A stretch of 64,000 nucleotides of DNA from Pseudomonas sessilinigenes (GTDB lineage Bacteria; Pseudomonadota; Gammaproteobacteria; Pseudomonadales; Pseudomonadaceae), in the NCBI RefSeq assembly GCF_003850565.1, contig NZ_CP027706.1, forward strand, positions 4,836,001 to 4,900,000, read 5' to 3'. Positions 48,302 to 56,980 of this stretch are shown here, piece by piece. The notes beneath the pieces were generated by a model, which was not told where the DNA came from, did not search any database, and saw only the letters and a list, made by a program, of their open reading frames with translations. The translations under genes and the position numbers were made by a program. Position 1 is the first letter of the stretch. Every line of letters begins with the position of its first letter.

Positions 48302-49189
48302 ATGTCGCTCAAGCACTTTATCCAAATCACCAAACCGGGGATCATTTTCGGTAACGTGCTTTCGGTGGCAGGCGGGTTCTTCCTGGCCTCGAAGGGGCAT
48401 GTCGATCTGGCCATTTTCCTGGCCGCCATGATCGGCACCTCGCTGGTGGTAGCGTCCGGTTGCGTGTTCAACAACTGCATCGACCGTGACATCGACCTGA
48501 AGATGGAGCGCACCAAGAACCGCGTGCTGGTCCAGGGCCTGATCTCCCTGGAAGTGGCCCTGGTCTATGCCTCCCTCCTCGGTGTCGCCGGCGTCGCCTT
48601 GCTGTACTACGTGGCCAACCCGTTGGCCGCATTGTTCGCGGTAATCGGCTTTGTCATCTACGTTGGCTTCTACAGCCTGTACCTCAAGCGCAAGTCGGTT
48701 CACGGCACGCTGGTGGGCAGCCTGTCCGGGGCCATGCCGCCGGTGATTGGTTACGTGGCCGTGAGCAACAGCTTCGACATGGCCGCGTTGACCCTGCTGG
48801 TGATGTTCAGCCTGTGGCAGATGCCGCATTCCTATGCCATCGCGATCTTCCGCTTCAACGACTACCTGGCCGCATCGATCCCGGTGCTGCCGGTCAAGCG
48901 CGGTATTCGCGTGGCCAAGAAGCACATCCTGTACTACATCCTGGCGTTCCTGGTGGCGACCCTGATGCTGACCTTCAGCGGGTATGCCGGCATGAGCTAC
49001 ATGGCGGTAGCGGCGGCGATGGGCATGTACTGGCTGTACATGGCCTGGACCGGCTACAAGGCGGTGGATGACACCGTGTGGGCCCGCAAGCTCTTCGTGT
49101 TCTCGATCTTCACCATCACCGCGTTGAGCGTGATGATGTCGGTGGATTTCAAGGCCCCGGCCGAGCTCTTGCTGACCTACGCCCACTGA
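48302..49189 (+). CDS. cyoE: Protoheme IX farnesyltransferase (heme O synthase)
   Basis: A 295-residue UbiA-family membrane prenyltransferase that converts heme b to heme o for subunit I. The first Asp-rich motif is [18 protein letters not shown]; the second region is in [19 protein letters not shown]. Eight or nine membrane segments are visible. It ends the operon, 15 bases before a strong terminator. Confidence 0.97.
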
Positions 49190-49204
49190 GCCTGACGATG
49201 TTCG

Positions 49205-49234
49205 AAAAAGCCCTGCCTTGCGCAGGGCTTTTTT
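49205..49234 (+). terminator. Rho-independent terminator of cyoABCDE
   Basis: AAAAAGCCCTGC (49205-49216) pairs with GCAGGGCTTTTT (49222-49233) around CTTGC. It ends the cyo transcript and isolates the next regulator gene. The 198 bases to the regulator hold no other feature I can support. Confidence 0.93.
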
Positions 49235-49432
49235 GTGCTTGTCGGTAAGTGCGGCGATTGTCTGGACAAGTAGCCCCCGGGCATGATTCATTCAGCGCTC
49301 GTTCAACAGTAGGAGGTTGGACGAGCCGGTTTCTGGCGGTGGCGATTCACTCCAGGCGCTTCGGATCGAAGGCCGTCGTGGCAGCGGGTTCAAAAGATCC
49401 GGTTGTCTTTATGTTGACCAGGGATGAGGCAC

Positions 49433-50128
49433 ATGCGAAGCGACAATCTATCCAATAACCCCACGTCTTTGGCCGCGCTGGATCGGCGCGAGCAATTGGA
49501 CAGCGAACTGGCCAACCTCGGGTTGGGCCTGTTCGAGGTCTATCAATGCGGGCCGACGCTGGACGAAGCGGAAACCATCACCAACCACCCCGAAGTCCTG
49601 CAACCGCCCAAGGTTGACGAGGGCTACCAGCGCGAGCAACTGCTGTCGCTGTCCAAGCGGCGCATCAAGCCGTTTTTCTGGAGCGACGAAAACCTGCTGG
49701 TCAACGCCGACGAAGAAGGCCATGCACCGCCGGTAGCCGAAGGTGCGAGTTTCATCGTCCATGGTAACCAGGGGTTCTATTCGATCCTCAACTTGTGCAG
49801 CCTGGGTGAGAGCCATCGCTTCCGGGAAACGGTGCAAGCGCACAAGAGCGATATCCAGATGCTCTTGGTCTCGGTCTACGACGAGTCCCTGGAGAGCAGT
49901 GCCCCTATTCCCGAACTGCCGACAAGTATCCTGACTCCCCGGGAAACCGAAGTGCTGTCATGGACCAGTATTGGCAAGACGTATAACGAGATTTCGTTGT
50001 TGGCCAATATGAGTCCGCGCACCGTGAAGTTTCATATGAAGAATATCTTCAATAAACTCGAGGTGAATAACGGTAAGTCGGCTATTCGCAAAGCGCTGCA
50101 ACTTGGATATATAAAAGAGCCTGAGTAA
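49433..50128 (+). CDS. LuxR-type regulator next to the biosynthetic operon
   Basis: About 231 residues. The C-terminal LuxR helix-turn-helix (about 165-225) has LTPRETEVLSWTSIGKTYNEIS and MSPRTVKFHMKNIFNKLEV. The N-terminal 150 residues weakly follow the autoinducer-binding fold: IKPFFWSDEN and ASFIVHGNQGFYSILNL sit where that domain has its conserved Trp and Gly. Other usual ligand residues are not obvious, and no LuxI is in the window. I take it as a LuxR solo that may respond to another ligand. The ATG at 49433 has GAGG upstream; an ATG at 49424 is also possible. It likely controls the next operon. Confidence 0.82.
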   Translation: MRSDNLSNNPTSLAALDRREQLDSELANLGLGLFEVYQCGPTLDEAETITNHPEVLQPPKVDEGYQREQLLSLSKRRIKPFFWSDENLLVNADEEGHAPPVAEGASFIVHGNQGFYSILNLCSLGESHRFRETVQAHKSDIQMLLVSVYDESLESSAPIPELPTSILTPRETEVLSWTSIGKTYNEISLLANMSPRTVKFHMKNIFNKLEVNNGKSAIRKALQLGYIKEPE

Positions 50129-50572
50129 CTTCTCCTCGAGTTCGCCGGTTAAAAAACCTCTTACACCTTACTGGACTGCGCACGAGCCTGATCGTGCGCA
50201 GCCTTGTGCTGGTCCTTCAAATGACTCCCGACCATGTCCCCGAGGCCGTGCCTCACCAGGCTCGCCCAGCGCTCTCCCGTACGGGTTTTGAGCCTGTTTG
50301 GATGAACTTTTCCTGGGCCAGGTCCAGGAAATACAGGCCCTGGCAGCGACCCTGTCTAAAAGGGCAGCTTGTTGCCAAGGTGGCGCTGCTTTAGTTTTTT
50401 TCCTGCGATAAAGCCTGGTCCAGGCAATAAAAAAATTAGCCGCAATGTTCGCCAGCCTTGTGTTCCGAATCGGGAATCAAGCAGCGCGTGATCAAATTGA
50501 GCGTGATTGAAGTTGATTCCCTTCTGCTAAGGAAGTGAACGTTGTTGCGTACCGCTTAATTATGGAGTGATT
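50129..50572 (+). promoter_or_regulatory. Leader and operator region of the desaturase operon
   Basis: A 444-base AT-richer spacer with no gene. A perfect ten-base-pair hairpin (50176-50185 with 50192-50201) follows the regulator gene but lacks a T-tract. Two inverted repeats of the same core are visible: TCCTGG-n7-CCAGGA at 50311-50329 and GCCTGG-T-CCAGGC at 50413-50425. They lie 244 and 148 bases before the desaturase start and may be regulator sites. They do not match a standard lux box. TTCCGAATCGGGAA near 50464 is a further imperfect palindrome. Confidence 0.45.
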
Positions 50573-51643
50573 ATGCAGGTCGATAAGAATAAAGAGCCTA
50601 CTGGTGAATTGGCCGCGGGGATTACACGTGAAACTTTCGGGATGTTGAAACATCTTTGCAAGAAAGATAATTACCACTGGATGATTGCCCTCGGCAAAGA
50701 CTACGCCATCATTGCCTTCGCCATTTATCTGTCCCTTGGAATCAGCTACTGGTTCTATCCGCTGTCGCTGTTCCTGATTGGCACCACCCAACGCGCCTTG
50801 GCCAACATCCTTCATGAGTCGGCCCACAAGATGCTGGCCGAGAACCGCGCGATCAACTGGTTTGCCGGGACCTTTCTTTCCGGCTACCTGATTTTTCACC
50901 TGCACCAGTCCTATGTGGTGTCGCACATCAAGAACCACCATGTGCACCTGGGGCACCCGGAAAAAGACCCGGACTATGCCTTCCACCTCAAGTGCGGCCT
51001 GTATGACGTCAATCAATCCGAGCGTGAGTTCTTCCTGAAGAACGTGCTGATGGCACTCTCCGGGTTCCGCACCCTGCAATACATCAAGTACATCGTCAAC
51101 GACCGGGTCAAGCCCCAGGGCCAGGATCGCAAGTTCACCATCGAACGCTGGTTGCTGTGGGGCTACTGGCTGGCCATTTTCGCGGTGGCCGGCTACTTCG
51201 GGGTGATCGGCCAGTTGCTGCTGTTCTGGCTGGTACCGCTGTTCACCATGGCGGTGGCAGTGGGCTGGATCATCGAGCTGGCGGAGCACTATCCATTGCC
51301 GGCGGCCGAAAAGGAAAAACTCCTGCTGACCCGTAACCGCAAGGGTTCGGCCCTGGAAAACTTCTTCTTCGGCCGGCATGACGACAACTACCACCTGGTG
51401 CACCACCTGCATCCAGCCATTCCCCACTGGAACATGAAGAAAGCCCATGCGCTACTGATGACTCACCCCGAGTACGCCCGCTGGGACAACCTTTGGGCCG
51501 GCATCTTCACTCGCGACCGCAAGGGCCGGCACAAGGAGACGATGCTCAGCTACGCCGCCAAGTACCGCGCCCATCGCCTGAGCAATCGTGACGACACCAG
51601 CAGTTTCGCCCAGCAGATCCTTACTCAAGCTTCCGGGGTTTGA
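50573..51643 (+). CDS. Membrane di-iron fatty-acid-desaturase-family enzyme
   Basis: A 356-residue membrane protein with four to six hydrophobic segments and the three histidine boxes of the desaturase/hydroxylase family: HESAH (81-85), HIKNHH (118-123) and HLVHH (274-278), with an extra His in AEHYP (239). Such enzymes use a di-iron centre and O2 to desaturate or hydroxylate. The family includes RtxC, which desaturates an amino-acid-derived toxin (rhizobitoxine), so a lipid substrate is not assured. GGAG seven bases before the ATG at 50573 sets the start. It is the first gene of a five-gene operon. Confidence 0.88.
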   Translation: MQVDKNKEPTGELAAGITRETFGMLKHLCKKDNYHWMIALGKDYAIIAFAIYLSLGISYWFYPLSLFLIGTTQRALANILHESAHKMLAENRAINWFAGTFLSGYLIFHLHQSYVVSHIKNHHVHLGHPEKDPDYAFHLKCGLYDVNQSEREFFLKNVLMALSGFRTLQYIKYIVNDRVKPQGQDRKFTIERWLLWGYWLAIFAVAGYFGVIGQLLLFWLVPLFTMAVAVGWIIELAEHYPLPAAEKEKLLLTRNRKGSALENFFFGRHDDNYHLVHHLHPAIPHWNMKKAHALLMTHPEYARWDNLWAGIFTRDRKGRHKETMLSYAAKYRAHRLSNRDDTSSFAQQILTQASGV

Positions 51644-51646
51644 ACC

Positions 51647-52618
51647 ATGACCGATATGCCATCCAGCCTCATCGCAACCCTGGCCCTGAAAAGGCTCGCA
51701 GCCACCCCGGCCTATCGCGAAATGTTCCTGGCCTGCGCTTCCCTGCGTGATTTCCTGCGTCCTGCGGCCCTGCGCTACATCATTTCCGAGGACCGTGCGC
51801 AGATGCTGGACAAACTTGCAGCCCTGCAACTCAAGGGCTACCGCACCGGGTTGGAATATGTGGGTGAGGAGGCCAATACCCTGGCCGAAGTCCAGCAGGC
51901 CACCGAGGAATACCTGCGGTTGATCGACGCGATGTCCAGCCATGGCGGATTGCAGGAGCCGACCCAGTTGGGCTTCGACCTGTCCAACGTGGGCAGCCTG
52001 ATTTCCCGTGAGCTGGCACTGGAGAACTGCAACCGCATCCTGGCCCGGGCCGCCGAACGCTCGGTCGGAGTGATCATCAGCATGGAACGGTCGCAATGGA
52101 CCGATTCGATCCTGGATATCTTCCTGGCATTGAGCCGCCAGCATTCGCACCTGGGCATCACCCTGCAGGCTCAGCTGAACCGCACCGCCGATGACCTGGA
52201 AGACGTACTCAAGACCGGTTGCAAGGTGCGCCTGGTCAAGGGGGTCTACAGCGAGCCTGCGGCCGTCGCCCTGCCTCGGGGCGAAGCCCTGGACCAGCGA
52301 TATCTGGGTTTGTTGGAGCGCATCCGTGGTGCCGGTATCGCCTATGCCTTCGCCACCCAGGACCCAAGCCTGGTGCAAACCATCTGTGCCAGCGGGCTGG
52401 CCGATGGCGGGGAACTGGAGATGCTCCATGGTGTGCGCCCGCAACTGATCAAGTCGGTCAAGGACCAGGGCCGGGTCAAGACCCGGGTCTCGGCGGTCTA
52501 CGGCACCAACTGGTACCTGCACTTGCTGCATCGCATCGCCGAGTTTCCCGAGAACATTTTCCTGGCACTGGATGACGTGGCGAGCAAGCGCCAGTCGACA
52601 ACCGCCGCCTCCTACTGA
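51647..52618 (+). CDS. Proline dehydrogenase-like flavoenzyme, divergent active site
   Basis: A 323-residue TIM-barrel protein of the monofunctional proline dehydrogenase family. VRLVKGVYSEP (194-204) matches the family's VRL-x-KGAY-x-EP, and YGTNWYLHLLHRIAEFPEN (285-303) matches the C-terminal YG-x-x-WY...RRLAERP-x-N block. Differences from the usual sequence are His295-Arg296 in place of Arg-Arg, which bind the proline carboxylate, FATQD for FATHD (235-239), MLHG for MLYG (259-262) and SME for DME (145-147). FAD oxidation of an amino or imino acid is likely, but the substrate may not be proline. It is three bases after the desaturase. Confidence 0.85.
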   Translation: MTDMPSSLIATLALKRLAATPAYREMFLACASLRDFLRPAALRYIISEDRAQMLDKLAALQLKGYRTGLEYVGEEANTLAEVQQATEEYLRLIDAMSSHGGLQEPTQLGFDLSNVGSLISRELALENCNRILARAAERSVGVIISMERSQWTDSILDIFLALSRQHSHLGITLQAQLNRTADDLEDVLKTGCKVRLVKGVYSEPAAVALPRGEALDQRYLGLLERIRGAGIAYAFATQDPSLVQTICASGLADGGELEMLHGVRPQLIKSVKDQGRVKTRVSAVYGTNWYLHLLHRIAEFPENIFLALDDVASKRQSTTAASY

Positions 52619-52630
52619 TTGGGCCTTCTC

Positions 52631-53878
52631 ATGAAAAAATATGTCGCGTTGGTCGATGTCTACTCCAGCGGTAACTTCCTGCCGCAATACTTCAAGGACG
52701 CCGGGATCGGCCTGCTGCATGTGCAGAGCACCAAGGAGCTGATGCCGAGCATGCTCGGCCCGAACCTGGACGAGTTCGAGCACAACCTGGCGTTCGACGA
52801 CAATGCCCAGGATATCGTCGCACGCTTGCGCGAATTCCCGCTGGTGGCGGTCATCGCCGGCCAGGAGCCAGGCGTGCCGTTCGCCGACTACCTGAGCGAG
52901 CAACTGCAGTTGCCGAGCAATGGCAGTGCCGGTTCGCTGGCCCGGCGCAACAAGTTCGAGATGATCAACAAGGTGGCGGCCGCCGGCCTGCTCACCGCAC
53001 GCCAGGTCAAGTCCAGCAGTGCCGCGCAACTGCTGGAGTGGGTCGAGGCCGGCAATGTGCTGCCCTGCGTGATCAAGCCGCTGAGTTCGGCATCGACCGA
53101 TGGCGTATCGATTTGCCATGACCTGGCGGATGTCGAACGAGCCTGCCAGGAGGTGCTGGCCAACCAGGACATCTTCGGCCTGGCCAACACCGAGATCCTT
53201 TGCCAGTCCTACCTCAAGGGCAACGAGTACATCGTCGACACCGTCAGTCGCGATGGCCAGACCTATGTCTGCGGTATCTGGCGCTACGTCAAGCGCGAGA
53301 TCGGCCATGGCAAGAACATCTACGACCGCGACGTGCTGATCGCCCCGGACAGCGACGTTGCCAATGCGCTGGTGGACTACATCCTCCAGGTTCTCAAGGC
53401 CTTGGGTATCGACAACGGGCCTGCGCATTCGGAAGTCATCATGACCGAGCAGGGACCGGCGCTGGTGGAGGTGGGGGCGCGGCTGAACGGCAACATGGAG
53501 CCGCGCTTCCACGACATCAGCCTGGACGGCAACCAGGCGCAACTGACCTACCTGGCCTATTGCGAGCCCGAGCGCTTCAAGGCGCAGTACGCTGGCAAGC
53601 GCTACAAGAAGCTCAAGGAGGCTTGCGTGATCAACACCGATACCACCCTGAGTGGCGAGGTCACCGGTTTCGATCCACAGGCCATCCAGAGCATCGAGAA
53701 CCTGGCGACGGTGCATAAGCTCAGCGTCAAGTACAAGGTGGGCAAGCAGATGAAACCCACCGTGGACCTGCTCAGCAGCCCGTTGCGAGTGTTCCTGTAC
53801 GCCGACGAGCAGCAGCGGATCGACCAGGACTACGAGCAGATCCGCGCCTACAAAGATCGCGTGTACTGCGTACGATGA
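52631..53878 (+). CDS. ATP-grasp carboxylate-amine ligase (L-amino-acid-ligase-like)
   Basis: A 415-residue ATP-grasp protein. The ATP-binding lysine is in LPCVIKPLSSAST (K149), the glycine-poor loop region spans about 150-160, and the metal-binding motif is LVEVGARLNGNMEP (E280, R284, N286), as in L-amino-acid ligases such as BacD-like enzymes. These join an amino acid carboxylate to an amine via an acyl phosphate. The start is the ATG at 52631, 12 bases past the previous stop; a TTG at 52619 is possible. Its stop overlaps the transporter start. It probably makes the amide or peptide bond of the product. Confidence 0.87.
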   Translation: MKKYVALVDVYSSGNFLPQYFKDAGIGLLHVQSTKELMPSMLGPNLDEFEHNLAFDDNAQDIVARLREFPLVAVIAGQEPGVPFADYLSEQLQLPSNGSAGSLARRNKFEMINKVAAAGLLTARQVKSSSAAQLLEWVEAGNVLPCVIKPLSSASTDGVSICHDLADVERACQEVLANQDIFGLANTEILCQSYLKGNEYIVDTVSRDGQTYVCGIWRYVKREIGHGKNIYDRDVLIAPDSDVANALVDYILQVLKALGIDNGPAHSEVIMTEQGPALVEVGARLNGNMEPRFHDISLDGNQAQLTYLAYCEPERFKAQYAGKRYKKLKEACVINTDTTLSGEVTGFDPQAIQSIENLATVHKLSVKYKVGKQMKPTVDLLSSPLRVFLYADEQQRIDQDYEQIRAYKDRVYCVR

Positions 53879-55083
53879 TGGGCACCTATCACGCCCTGCG
53901 CGGGCTCAACCGGCGCTTGCAGGCACTGTTCGTGGTGACCCTGGTGTTTCGCATGGGCACCATGGCGTTCCCGTTCTACGCCGCCTACCTGATCCACCAG
54001 CATGCAGTCTCGGCGAGTATCGCCGGGCTGCTGGTGGGCACTTATGGCGTGGGTGCGCTGTTCGTCGACCTGATCGTCGGGGCGCTGATCAAGCGCTTCT
54101 CCTCGGGGAGGGTGATCCTGGGTTCGCTGCTGACCAACGCCCTGCTGTTGCTGATCATCCCCTCGATCGACAGCATCGCGGCGTTGTTCGTGCTGTCGTT
54201 CCTCTGGGGGGGCTGCTACGAGGCCTTCACTCCGGCGACCTTCTCGGAGACGGTCAAGCACAGCGACCTGCAAACCCGCAAGGTGGCGTTTTCCTGCAAT
54301 CGCCTGGCGATCAATATCGGCATGGCCATCGGTCCACTGCTGGGCAGCCTGGTGTTCCTCAGTTCGGCCAGCGCGGTGTTCTACATCAATGCCGGGCTAT
54401 CGCTGTTGTCGTTCGTCGTCTGCCTGCGCTTTGCCGGCCATGCCTCCACGCAGGCCGCGGGCATGGCGGCGAACCAGGGGCGTGGCAACGGCTTGCCCGA
54501 TAGCGTGCCGTTCGAGCGCTCGCGCTTGCTGGTGATCCTGTTGACCTCATTGCCGGTGCACATTGCCTATGCCCTGCCGCCGACGTTTCTCTCGGCCTAC
54601 ATCATCAACTACACCGATCTTCCGACCTACTTCGTCGGGATCATCTTCTTCATCAATGCACTGCTGGTGATCCTGTTCGAAGTGCCGATCAACCAGCGCA
54701 TGTCCCATCTCTCCAGCAGCTACTCGCTGGTTGCGGGCTTTGTGTTGGCCGGGATCGGTTTCTTCCTCATGGGCTTCAGCGAGATCGGCTTGCTGCTGTT
54801 GCTGGCGACCGTGCTGTGGAGCCTGGGGGAGATGATCGTCTTTCCCAGCATCACGCACTACGTCAGCAGCATCTCCAGCCAGCACACGGTGGATCGCAAC
54901 CTGGGCTACTACTCGGCTGGCGTGAACATCGGGGTGATGATCACGCCCTCCCTGGCCTTCATGCTGGTGACCCAGCCGGCGTTGCTTTCGCCCTGGCTGG
55001 TCGCGGGGATCGTGTTGCTGTTGTTCGGCATCGGTGTGTCATTGATGAAACGTTCGGCCACTCTCTGGAACAAGGAAGCCTGA
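53875..55083 (+). CDS. Major facilitator superfamily transporter, likely exporter
   Basis: A 402-residue protein with twelve hydrophobic segments. Typical stretches are RMGTMAFPFYAAYLIHQ (TM1), GLLVGTYGVGALFVDLIVGALIKRFSSGRVILGS (TM2-3 loop of the D-x-x-x-G-x-x-x-R type, here with VGALIKRFSSGR), and EVPINQRMSHLSS between TM8 and TM9. It resembles drug/metabolite exporters. It overlaps the ligase by four bases (ATGA). In this operon it most likely exports the product and gives self-protection. Confidence 0.88.
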   Translation: MMGTYHALRGLNRRLQALFVVTLVFRMGTMAFPFYAAYLIHQHAVSASIAGLLVGTYGVGALFVDLIVGALIKRFSSGRVILGSLLTNALLLLIIPSIDSIAALFVLSFLWGGCYEAFTPATFSETVKHSDLQTRKVAFSCNRLAINIGMAIGPLLGSLVFLSSASAVFYINAGLSLLSFVVCLRFAGHASTQAAGMAANQGRGNGLPDSVPFERSRLLVILLTSLPVHIAYALPPTFLSAYIINYTDLPTYFVGIIFFINALLVILFEVPINQRMSHLSSSYSLVAGFVLAGIGFFLMGFSEIGLLLLLATVLWSLGEMIVFPSITHYVSSISSQHTVDRNLGYYSAGVNIGVMITPSLAFMLVTQPALLSPWLVAGIVLLLFGIGVSLMKRSATLWNKEA

Positions 55084-55086
55084 GCC

Positions 55087-56208
55087 ATGAGTCTCGTGCA
55101 TTTGAATACCGCCGGGGCAGGCCTGATGTCTGCCGCCACCGTAGAGGCAATGCGTGGCTTCATCGATGGCGAGGCCGACCAGGGCAGCTACGAAACCGAG
55201 CTGCAATACGCCGACCTGCTCGGGCACGGCCTGTATGAGCGAGCGGCGCAGATGCTCAATGCCCCGCGCGCGAACATCGGGCTGTTCAGCAGTGCCACCG
55301 AGGCCTGGGCCGGCATCCTCTCCAAGCTGGAGTTTCCCCTGGGGTGCCGGGTCTGGGTGTCGAGTTCCGAATACGCCGCCAACTTGATCTTCTTCAACTT
55401 CCTCAAGCAGAGTCGGGGCGTGCGGGTCGAGGTCATACCGCGTACAGCACAAAGCCCGCTGGATTTGGATTGGGTACGACGCCACCTGGGGGGCGATGTG
55501 TTCCTGGTCAGTGTCTCGCACATTCCTTCGTGCTGCGGCGTGGTCAATCCGGTCGAGGCCCTGGGGGCGATCCTGCGCGAGCATCCGGCCTATTACGTGG
55601 TCGATGCCTGCCAATCCATGGGCCAACTGGCACTGGATGTCCGGGACATGCACTGCGACCTGTTGACCGGGGCAGGCCGTAAGTTCCTCTGTGGGCCGCG
55701 GGGCAGTGGCATCGCCTATGTCTCGAACCGGCTGCTGGGTGACTTGACGCTGAACTTCGCCGACTTGCATACCGCCCGCACCAACGGGCAGGTCAACCGT
55801 ATCGATGTGCTGGATGCACGAGTGCTGGAGATCGCAGAAAAGAGTTTCAGTGCCCTGGTCGGGCTTCACCAGGCGCTGGGCGAATACCTGGCTGATCGCG
55901 AGCGTCTGGCCAATGAGGCCTACACCTTGCTCAGTAGTGAATTGGCCCGGTTACCGGGATTGCGGCTGCTGTGTGCCGAGTATCGGCAAAGCGGCATCGT
56001 TTCGTTCGTGCCGGAGCGTGGCACGGCCCAGGAGTTCGTTGCCAGGGCCCGGGAGGCGGGGGTCAACCTGTGGGCCGGAACCGCTGCCCACACACCATTG
56101 CTGCTGGCGGACCTGCCCGCCAGCCACTTCGTCCGGGCTTCGGTCGGGCGTCGGGTGAGCGTGGCGCAGGTAGAGCTGGCGCTGGAACGAATTCGTCCAC
56201 TGTTGTGA
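55087..56208 (+). CDS. Class-V PLP-dependent enzyme (EgtE/CefD-like)
   Basis: A 373-residue fold-type I PLP enzyme of the class V aminotransferase group. The PLP-binding lysine is K199 in LLTGAGRKFLCGPRGSG, and the pyridine-binding Asp is D173 in VVDACQSMGQ, with Q176 at the usual partner site. The RKF...GPRGSG form is shared with EgtE-like C-S lyases and CefD-like epimerases rather than cysteine desulfurases, and no sulfur-loop cysteine is seen at the usual place. The reaction could be lyase, epimerase or transamination. It starts three bases after the transporter and is the last gene before a terminator. Confidence 0.86.
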   Translation: MSLVHLNTAGAGLMSAATVEAMRGFIDGEADQGSYETELQYADLLGHGLYERAAQMLNAPRANIGLFSSATEAWAGILSKLEFPLGCRVWVSSSEYAANLIFFNFLKQSRGVRVEVIPRTAQSPLDLDWVRRHLGGDVFLVSVSHIPSCCGVVNPVEALGAILREHPAYYVVDACQSMGQLALDVRDMHCDLLTGAGRKFLCGPRGSGIAYVSNRLLGDLTLNFADLHTARTNGQVNRIDVLDARVLEIAEKSFSALVGLHQALGEYLADRERLANEAYTLLSSELARLPGLRLLCAEYRQSGIVSFVPERGTAQEFVARAREAGVNLWAGTAAHTPLLLADLPASHFVRASVGRRVSVAQVELALERIRPLL

Positions 56209-56223
56209 GTTGGTGCTCCTTGA

Positions 56224-56260
56224 ACGCCCTGTCTTCCTCGGAATTCAGGGCGTCTTTTTA
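56224..56260 (+). terminator. Terminator of the desaturase-PLP operon
   Basis: ACGCCCTG (56224-56231) pairs with CAGGGCGT (56246-56253), with an inner TTCC/GGAA stem in the loop, then CTTTTTAT. It lies 15 bases past the last gene and closes the five-gene unit. Confidence 0.85.
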
Positions 56261-56278
56261 TCTATCGACCTGGCGGGA

Positions 56279-56980
56279 TCAGAGTTGCTGTTGCGCGCTG
56301 TAGCCGGGGAACGCGGTCTGCTGCTGGATCGCGGTGACGATGTTCTTGCGGGTCGCCGGTTGCTCGGCACCGTTGTTGTCGACGAATACCTCGCTTTGCA
56401 GCTCGGCTTCTTCGCCTTCACCGACAAAGCTGAAGCCCAGGAACTCGAAGGCTTCGCGGTCGGCATTGGCCTTGGAGCGCGGGCGCATCGGCAGGGTGAC
56501 GCTGAGGCCATCCTTGCTGATGGCGAACACTTCCATTTCCTTCTTGGGCCGCGATGCCTTGCTCTTGCCGCTTGGGTTGCTGATGGCCTGGTGGGTCTGG
56601 TTCAGCACCTTGAGCGCCAGGCCATAGACCAGTTCCTGGAAGTCCGGGTCGTCCTTGTAGCTGGAGAGAATCCGGCTGATGGGGAATTTCTTGCTCAGGT
56701 CCTCCAGGGCGGCGAGGTCCGCCGCTTCGGCGTCCTTGAGTTGCTTGAGCTGGCCCATGAGTTCATAGGCGGTATCGTCGTCAAAGCGGTCGTGGGCCTG
56801 GCGGATGGCTGCGCGCAGCTCGCGAATCTGGTCACTTTCTTTCGAGGTGTGGAAGGCGTCGAGCACCATCTCGCTGATGGTCTTGGCCTGGGACACATGC
56901 TGGGAAAGATGCATGGCGTTTTCGTACTCGGTCTTGTTCGACAAGGCGATCACGGATTCTTCGGTGTTGGAATCAGGCAT
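56279..56980 (-). CDS. Uncharacterised cytoplasmic protein, 233 residues
   Basis: No signal or membrane segment. The first half is helical and charged (SESDQIRELRAAIRQAHDRFDD-like; ELMGQLKQLKDAEAADLAALEDL), likely a coiled coil. The second half contains RPKKEMEVFAISKDGLSVTLPMRPRSKANADREAFEFLGFSFVGEGEE, which reads like a small beta domain. I do not recognise the family. It is convergent with the operon to its left, with only the terminator between. A long GC-rich hairpin lies at 57012-57048 in its upstream region. Confidence 0.8.
   Translation of the reverse strand: MPDSNTEESVIALSNKTEYENAMHLSQHVSQAKTISEMVLDAFHTSKESDQIRELRAAIRQAHDRFDDDTAYELMGQLKQLKDAEAADLAALEDLSKKFPISRILSSYKDDPDFQELVYGLALKVLNQTHQAISNPSGKSKASRPKKEMEVFAISKDGLSVTLPMRPRSKANADREAFEFLGFSFVGEGEEAELQSEVFVDNNGAEQPATRKNIVTAIQQQTAFPGYSAQQQL

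What the first reader, a model, noticed from the sequence alone, without database searches (positions are those of the whole stretch)
49433..56260. Undescribed-looking small-metabolite operon: LuxR, desaturase, ProDH-like, ATP-grasp, MFS, class-V PLP enzyme
Seen: five genes packed with gaps of 3, 12, -4 and 3 bases, closed by a terminator and preceded by a LuxR-type regulator and a 444-base leader. Known: each family modifies, joins or exports amino-acid-like molecules, and ATP-grasp ligases make peptide bonds without NRPSs. Inference: together they make and export a modified amino acid or dipeptide under LuxR control. There is no NRPS or PKS gene, so rule-based cluster finders could miss it. 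I do not recognise the set as a named pathway.
Basis: partly seen in the sequence, partly recalled or inferred. Interest (0 to 1): 0.85.

Follow-up and report, generated by a model that had tools for sequence, protein, structure and literature searches.

The report
Probable arginine-derived amino-acid assembly operon
A tightly packed set of bacterial genes, found in the same order in distant bacteria, probably turns arginine into an unusual amino acid, joins it to another amino acid and exports the product; what the product is remains unknown.

Summary
In detail: LuxR gene, 444-base leader, five genes with gaps 3, 12, -4, 3, and a strong terminator. The five genes do travel together: the same order recurs in 11 of 67 named loci found with the desaturase (6 Pseudomonas, Chitinimonas, 3 Streptomyces, Nocardiopsis). 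The core is desaturase + ProDH-like + class-V PLP enzyme (28 of 67), also found before NRPS-type genes (Streptomyces) and with exporter genes only (Rhodobacterales). In 298 Pseudomonas genomes ProDH-like and PLP genes (E<=1e-70) occur in the same 13. The desaturase family points to arginine side chains (GntB, XcnN), and LysE-family exporter genes flank two distant copies. All 33 triad ProDHs examined swap three proline-pocket residues (K/D/R to D/S/H); the PLP enzyme lacks the desulfurase cysteine. Best reading: arginine oxidation makes an unusual, possibly cyclic amino acid that an ATP-grasp ligase couples and an MFS protein exports. Substrate, chemistry, product and regulation are inferred, not shown; ten searches of an open-access library listed no paper on the set. 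New variant of a known kind, with an undescribed core.

The parts
49433..50128 (+). LuxR-type (GerE HTH) regulator, part of the type-A cluster
   Evidence: PF00196 61.5 bits; present before the operon in the window and in 6 of 6 named type-A relatives, 69-71% identity in the alignment
50129..50572 (+). 444-base leader between regulator and operon
   Evidence: aligned with six relatives
50351..50373 (+). invariant 23-mer with a lux-box-like imperfect dyad (CTG-N10-CAG), candidate regulator site
   Evidence: identical in 7 of 7 leaders whose mean column identity is 48%; single copy in the own genome with up to 3 mismatches; the bare CTG-N10-CAG pattern is not rarer or commoner than chance in the window
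50573..51643 (+). membrane di-iron hydroxylase/desaturase related to GntB and XcnN
51647..52618 (+). ProDH-like flavoenzyme with altered substrate pocket (D111, S145, H295)
   Evidence: PF01619 62.6 bits; residue table; PDB alignment
52631..53878 (+). ATP-grasp amino-acid ligase
   Evidence: NF005543 353.9 bits, cut-off 302; PDB L-amino acid ligase 30vh E 5.1e-46
53875..55083 (+). MFS transporter, probably exporter
   Evidence: PF07690 125.4 bits; weak similarity to drug-efflux models, all below cut-off
55087..56208 (+). class-V PLP enzyme with the PLP lysine (K199), without the desulfurase Cys
   Evidence: PF00266 128.1 bits
56224..56260 (+). intrinsic terminator: eight-pair stem, then a T run
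   Evidence: fold of 56212-56264, -19.4 kcal/mol, z -4.1

Best explanation
The operon is a small biosynthetic cluster without an NRPS. A three-enzyme cassette makes an unusual amino acid from L-arginine: the membrane di-iron enzyme oxidises the arginine side chain (most likely gamma-hydroxylation, as GntB does); the PLP enzyme acts on that product, most likely by loss of water and ring closure onto the guanidine; the ProDH-like flavoenzyme, with a pocket changed away from proline, then oxidises a C-N bond of the product. The ATP-grasp ligase couples the amino acid to a second one, and the MFS protein exports the peptide. Expression probably depends on the LuxR-type protein acting at the conserved block in the leader. 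Shown by sequence: gene set, conservation, families, altered active sites, terminator. Inferred: substrate, order of steps, chemistry, product, export, regulation.
For: Five-gene order conserved in 11 of 67 named loci plus the window, triad in 28 of 67; the same 13 of 298 Pseudomonas genomes carry ProDH-like and PLP genes at E<=1e-70 (1 in 1.8e22 by random draw, though genomes are related), all 13 with the desaturase. Arginine: related to GntB (free-Arg gamma-hydroxylase, PMC10367076, passages) and 53-54% identical to the desaturase of Xenorhabdus loci that look like xcn (XcnMN removes the guanidine side chain of xenocoumacin oxidatively, PMC5055758, passages); 10 of 10 tested desaturases of the sister cluster (type B) exceed the GntB cut-off and the one type-B aldolase tested is GntG-family above cut-off; LysE-family exporter genes lie next to the five genes in Chitinimonas (with an ArgP-family regulator) and Nocardiopsis, 2 of the 5 non-Pseudomonas five-gene loci. 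Order: 7 loci have desaturase + PLP without ProDH, 0 have desaturase + ProDH without PLP. ProDH pocket: D/S/H instead of K/D/R in 33 of 33 triad ProDHs. PLP enzyme: no Cys in the loop in 38 of 38 rows with data.
Against: The window's desaturase is below the GntB cut-off (322.8 against 380) and its tree tie to the Xenorhabdus rows is weak (90/48). A family member in another Pseudomonas (L110) sits among homoserine- and glutamine-type genes, so the family need not be arginine-only. Rhodobacterales pair the triad with AzlCD, which usually handles neutral amino acids (recalled). The Asp/Ser/His signature also occurs in a Peribacillus ProDH-like protein without a triad. I know of no class-V PLP enzyme that cyclises hydroxyarginine; GntC, which does, was not compared with this one. 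No exporter score reaches its equivalog cut-off, and the LysE-family gene of Chitinimonas could be a housekeeping neighbour. In the three Streptomyces five-gene loci an AMP-binding gene lies 2.6-2.9 kb downstream, so there the set may feed an NRPS-like system.
Confidence: 0.5

Rival explanations
1. The cassette works on another amino acid (proline, lysine, ornithine or a branched-chain one), and the resulting modified amino acid is coupled and exported in the same way.
For: Window desaturase below the GntB cut-off; AzlCD exporter genes beside the triad in Rhodobacterales; the LysE-family genes score higher with the lysine-exporter than with the ArgO model; L110 context.
Against: The characterised relatives I found act on arginine or arginine-derived side chains; type-B desaturases pass the GntB cut-off in 10 of 10; residues of the proline pocket are changed in the ProDH-like protein.
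Confidence: 0.3
2. The ATP-grasp ligase acts first: the oxidases modify arginine inside a short peptide, as in mangotoxin.
For: MboA oxidises the Arg of the tripeptide Leu-Ala-Arg, and not Leu-Ala-Cit (PMC13185094, parts 1-2 of 6 read); XcnMN acts on xenocoumacin 1, an assembled product.
Against: Rhodobacterales copies have the triad with no ATP-grasp gene found by tblastn in the 20.9-21.0 kb held (L069, L072) or listed in the plasmid stretches (that gene table is incomplete), so the triad can work on something else, most simply a free amino acid.
Confidence: 0.2
3. It is a catabolic or detoxifying operon for a foreign amino acid or dipeptide, not a biosynthetic one.
For: ProDH family and class-V PLP lyases are common in catabolism (recalled); MFS direction is not shown.
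Against: The ligase family consumes ATP to join amino acids; the triad lies beside AMP-binding and P450 genes in Streptomyces and beside exporter-family genes elsewhere; patchy distribution (13 of 298).
Confidence: 0.1

Closest known systems
Guanitoxin pathway (GntB, GntC, GntG)
   Same: Membrane hydroxylase of a related family; in guanitoxin a PLP enzyme acts next; the sister cluster type B also has a GntG-family aldolase above cut-off (L023 tested)
   Different: The PLP enzyme here is class V (GntC recalled as class I/II; not compared); a ProDH-like flavoenzyme, an ATP-grasp ligase and an MFS protein are added; window desaturase below the GntB cut-off
Xenocoumacin XcnM/XcnN
   Same: Desaturase 53-54% identical to that of four Xenorhabdus loci whose gene order fits xcnM-xcnN
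   Different: XcnN works with a saccharopine-dehydrogenase-like partner on an NRPS/PKS product; no ProDH-like or PLP partner found there. The XcnM assignment in L050 is by eye and position: NCBIfam gave no family
Mangotoxin (mboABCDEF)
   Same: ATP-grasp-made peptide with an oxidised arginine-derived residue, in Pseudomonas (PMC13185094, parts 1-2 of 6)
   Different: Oxidase is a heme-oxygenase-like enzyme with its own reductase, two ligases and an arginine deiminase; none of these families is among the operon's proteins
Dapdiamide synthase DdaF and other L-amino acid ligases
   Same: ATP-grasp ligase family, 229.6 bits to DdaF, 160.7 bits to PDB 30vh
   Different: Far below the DdaF cut-off of 840; substrates unknown
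Phaseolotoxin cluster (desI)
   Same: A desaturase-family gene in a region essential for a Pseudomonas antimetabolite toxin (PMC3927611, passages)
   Different: Sequence relation to the window's desaturase not tested

Membership tests
GntB L-arginine gamma-hydroxylase (NF041365) | score above the curated cut-off of 380 bits | tested here: not met
   window 322.8; 11 other type-A, Streptomyces, Rhodobacterales, desaturase+PLP and Xenorhabdus rows tested 285.5-330.8; type-B Pseudomonas 10 of 10 above, 419.8-455.1
GntB L-arginine gamma-hydroxylase (NF041365) | histidine boxes of the membrane di-iron family | tested here: met
   H81/H85, H118/H122/H123, H274/H277/H278 invariant in 41 aligned rows
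GntB L-arginine gamma-hydroxylase (NF041365) | hydroxylates free L-arginine | not testable with these tools
   needs enzyme assay
Membrane di-iron monooxygenase/desaturase fold | structural match to a solved member | tested here: met
Proline dehydrogenase (proline catabolism) | Pro_dh sequence family | tested here: met
   PF01619 62.6 bits, cut-off 27; Thermus ProDH 2ekg E 2e-65 with profile A2; NCBIfam NF045947 141.4, below its cut-off of 500
Proline dehydrogenase (proline catabolism) | Lys, Asp and Arg-Arg of the proline pocket (residue roles recalled from PutA) | tested here: not met
   D111, S145, H295 (R296 kept); K-D-R-R in 3 canonical rows and in the aligned Thermus and Deinococcus-type PDB chains
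Cysteine desulfurase (SufS/IscS) | PLP lysine | tested here: met
   present in 40 of 40 rows
Cysteine desulfurase (SufS/IscS) | catalytic cysteine in the HHC loop (role recalled) | tested here: not met
   no Cys there in 38 of 38 rows with data; SufS model 86.8 bits, cut-off 475.1
Dapdiamide A synthase DdaF (NF041595) | score above cut-off 840 | tested here: not met
   229.6
PRK07206 ATP-grasp subfamily (NF005543) | score above cut-off 302 | tested here: met
   353.9
Mangotoxin-type cluster | heme-oxygenase-like oxidase, its reductase and an arginine deiminase | tested here: not met
   no such families among the operon's proteins in Pfam or NCBIfam
LuxR quorum-sensing receptor | autoinducer-binding domain | tested here: inconclusive
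   only GerE found; AlphaFold model pLDDT 43.7, too poor to search

The most novel reading that the evidence does not exclude
A proline dehydrogenase has been rebuilt into a dehydrogenase for a ring that carries a guanidine: a portable three-enzyme cassette hydroxylates free L-arginine, closes it to an enduracididine-like ring and oxidises that ring (for example to 2-aminoimidazolyl-alanine, a histidine mimic). The cassette is plugged into ATP-grasp, NRPS-type or plain export systems in at least two phyla.
Probability: 0.18. Interest if true: 0.85.

Novelty: new variant of a known kind. Interest (0 to 1): 0.62.

Why it matters
If right, it adds a compact route from arginine to an unusual amino acid that cluster finders keyed on NRPS or PKS genes could miss in the Pseudomonas, Chitinimonas and Rhodobacterales copies. 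It points to a ProDH subfamily with a distinct pocket signature (Asp/Ser/His) and a class-V PLP partner, gives a testable order of steps, and lists strains with the same five genes for comparative metabolomics.

Tried and rejected
Named pathways checked and dropped: mangotoxin, dapdiamide, guanitoxin proper, xenocoumacin (see membership rows). Ordinary proline catabolism and cysteine desulfuration dropped because key residues are changed. Ten neighbouring genes of three Streptomyces five-gene loci were scanned for a product clue: L059 has ketoacyl-synthase and AMP-binding genes downstream, L093 an AMP-binding match at the same distance and an acyl-CoA dehydrogenase, L057 a class-III aminotransferase and an NRPS-type gene; upstream genes look unrelated. 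This gave no product. Neighbours of two desaturase + PLP loci were scanned too: L071 has ATP-grasp, MFS, DUF1611 and a D-serine-dehydratase-like gene; L070 has a weak ATP-grasp, an amino-acid kinase with ACT, a metallo-beta-lactamase-fold and an Asp_Arg_Hydrox gene; no product either. NRPS-type sequences of L035, L057 and L059 were only looked at; specificity codes were not computed. LuxR sensor part: model too poor. Rfam: 0 families at gathering threshold in 49100-56500. Sigma-70 scan: 0 promoter-like sites, 2.3 expected; terminator scan: 6, 5.2 expected. CTG-N10-CAG: 21 found, 28.5 expected. Across the phylum only the own genome matched at 1e-40, 1 of 398, so the ProDH-like gene is rare. No MIBiG tool is on hand; the statement that no paper was found rests, judged by listed titles and abstract beginnings (searches listed 0; one search listed 20 of 98).
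Full report
WHAT IS THERE. On the + strand lie a LuxR-type HTH gene (49433-50128), a 444-base leader, and five genes with gaps 3, 12, -4 and 3: membrane desaturase family, ProDH family, ATP-grasp, MFS and class-V PLP. A stem of eight pairs followed by T residues closes the operon (-19.4 kcal/mol, z -4.1). Upstream is a UbiA-family gene, cyoE by its neighbours; downstream, on the other strand, is a gene with no Pfam or NCBIfam match (56279-56980).

DO THE GENES TRAVEL TOGETHER? Yes. In 298 Pseudomonas genomes (own included) the ProDH-like protein has matches in 19 at E<=0.001, of which 13 at E<=1e-70. The PLP enzyme has matches in 64 at E<=1e-40, of which 13 at E<=1e-70, in the same 13 genomes. 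The desaturase at E<=1e-55 is in those 13 and in 5 more. I fetched the 12 other triad loci plus the 3 next-best ProDH loci: all 12 carry all five families clustered (in L027 the PLP gene is in two pieces), and the 3 carry ProDH alone of these. A random draw of the same 13 of 298 has probability 5.6e-23, but related genomes are not independent draws. Four of the 13 (window included) have the window's arrangement (type A, ProDH 72-75% identical); nine have a second arrangement (type B: ProDH, aldolase, ATP-grasp, MFS, PLP, desaturase; about 44-46% for ProDH, 41-46% for PLP, 36-39% for the desaturase, 29-31% for the ligase, 24-25% for MFS).

WIDER DISTRIBUTION. A scan of one genome per species with the desaturase alignment gave 67 named loci. 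Neighbour search by tblastn: 28 of 67 carry the triad desaturase + ProDH-like + PLP (6 type A Pseudomonas, 5 with the same five-gene order elsewhere, 9 type B, 6 Streptomyces with AMP-binding and P450 genes, 2 Rhodobacterales); 7 of 67 carry desaturase + PLP without ProDH; 32 carry neither in the DNA held. Several of the 32 are short stretches (L060 and L062 end within 150 bases after the desaturase), so absence is not shown there. The five-gene order desaturase, ProDH, ATP-grasp, MFS, PLP is found in Pseudomonas (L043-L048), Chitinimonas (L054), Streptomyces (L057, L059, L093) and Nocardiopsis (L065, PLP cut by the end of the DNA held). In Streptomyces NBC_01006 the triad is followed by AMP-binding and P450 genes and preceded by ATP-grasp and peptidase genes. 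In Pseudosulfitobacter and Roseovarius plasmids it stands with an Lrp-type regulator and AzlC/AzlD genes, with no ATP-grasp gene listed (the gene table is incomplete; in Roseovarius the desaturase is split by an IS3-family gene); the same arrangement in L069 and L072 has no ATP-grasp match. In the phylum as a whole the ProDH-like gene is rare: 1 of 398 genomes at 1e-40, the own one.

PROLINE DEHYDROGENASE REBUILT. Six columns of the proline pocket were read in 41 non-redundant rows (rows with identical C-terminal sequence dropped). 33 of 33 triad-linked proteins read Asp-Ser-His-Arg-Glu-Tyr; the 3 canonical rows read Lys-Asp-Arg-Arg-Glu-Phe; the printed PDB ProDH chains show Lys, Asp and Arg-Arg at the first four. 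Four proteins beside genes annotated SgcE6, SgcJ or KedN5 (names I recall from enediyne clusters) read Glu-Ser-Gln (L038), Asp-Leu-Arg (L039, L041) and Asp-Gly-Arg (L040) at the first three. A Peribacillus plasmid protein without a triad (L042) reads Asp-Ser-His, so the signature is not exclusive to the triad. From recalled PutA work the Lys and both Arg hold the proline carboxylate; replacing Lys by Asp is what one would expect if a positive group now sits there. That is inference.

PLP ENZYME. The PLP lysine is present in 40 of 40 rows and the desulfurase cysteine is absent from its loop in 38 of 38 rows with data (the two rows without data are truncated). Its best NCBIfam hit is EgtE at 98.6 bits, cut-off 400. 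So its specificity is unassigned. Because 7 loci have desaturase + PLP without ProDH and none has desaturase + ProDH without PLP, I place the PLP step second and the ProDH step third.

LIGASE AND EXPORT. The ATP-grasp passes PRK07206 (353.9 against 302) and is nearest in the PDB to an L-amino acid ligase (30vh, E 5.1e-46). In type B both ligase and MFS are strongly diverged while ProDH and PLP keep about 45%: the core is kept and the coupling and export parts change, as expected if the amino acid is shared and the partner differs. In the three Streptomyces five-gene loci an AMP-binding gene lies 2.6-2.9 kb downstream, so there an NRPS-like step may follow.

REGULATION. The leaders of 7 type-A loci share an invariant 23-mer (window 50351-50373, 199 bases before the desaturase start) at a mean column identity of 48%; it is a single copy in the own genome within 3 mismatches. 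It has a CTG-N10-CAG dyad like a lux box (recalled consensus). The dyad pattern alone is at chance frequency, so the evidence is its conservation, not its form. The regulator's N-terminal part has no Pfam family and its model is too poor to use.

MECHANISM AND NOVELTY. My reading: arginine, side-chain oxidation, PLP-mediated dehydration and ring closure, ring oxidation by the ProDH-like enzyme, coupling, export. The steps after the first are chemistry by analogy. The closest kinds are ATP-grasp clusters such as mangotoxin (PMC13185094, parts 1 and 2 of 6 read) and dapdiamide, and arginine-modifying pathways such as guanitoxin. It fails membership of each by a tested feature but may work like them. 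None of ten paper searches listed a paper on this set, judged by titles and abstract beginnings; the library lacks most subscription journals, and MIBiG could not be compared.

Noticed in passing
L023:9437-16281 and type-B loci L082-L090: A second Pseudomonas cluster (P. mosselii, P. corrugata, P. mediterranea, P. reactans and others) pairs a GntB-grade hydroxylase with an aldolase (GntG-family above cut-off in L023, the only one tested) plus ProDH-like, PLP, ATP-grasp and MFS genes.
   Followed up: partly
L111:7134-9003, L112:9754-11677, L115:9548-11516: Pseudomonas GntB-type genes (480-514 bits, above cut-off) lie next to an EamA-family transporter gene and may make and export hydroxyarginine alone.
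   Followed up: partly
L110:5559-13110: Desaturase-family gene inside a cluster with glutamine-synthetase-like, homoserine O-succinyltransferase, LysE, peptidase C26, Cys/Met-PLP and class-V PLP genes: possibly another undescribed amino-acid pathway.
   Followed up: partly
L043:6276-8817, L044:7705-8826, L045:6193-8718, L046:7753-8838: Upstream of the LuxR gene 4 of 6 named relatives carry a class I aminotransferase gene, in L043 and, by eye, L045 preceded by an SHMT-like gene (L043: 325.5 bits, cut-off 335); only 243 bases separate cyoE and LuxR in the window, so neither is there.
   Followed up: partly
L038-L041: A ProDH-like protein with a changed pocket stands without the triad beside genes with enediyne-cluster names on Streptomyces plasmids.
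   Followed up: partly
L035:6528-8798: ATP-grasp that by eye is fused to an enolase-superfamily (dipeptide-epimerase-like) domain, next to a prolyl-oligopeptidase-family gene: suggests epimerisation on a dipeptide.
   Followed up: no
L027:2221-5964 / L090:6066-9809; L037:5660-7973: In one type-B Pseudomonas the PLP gene is in two separate pieces, and in Roseovarius the desaturase is split by an IS3-family gene: some copies look inactivated.
   Followed up: no
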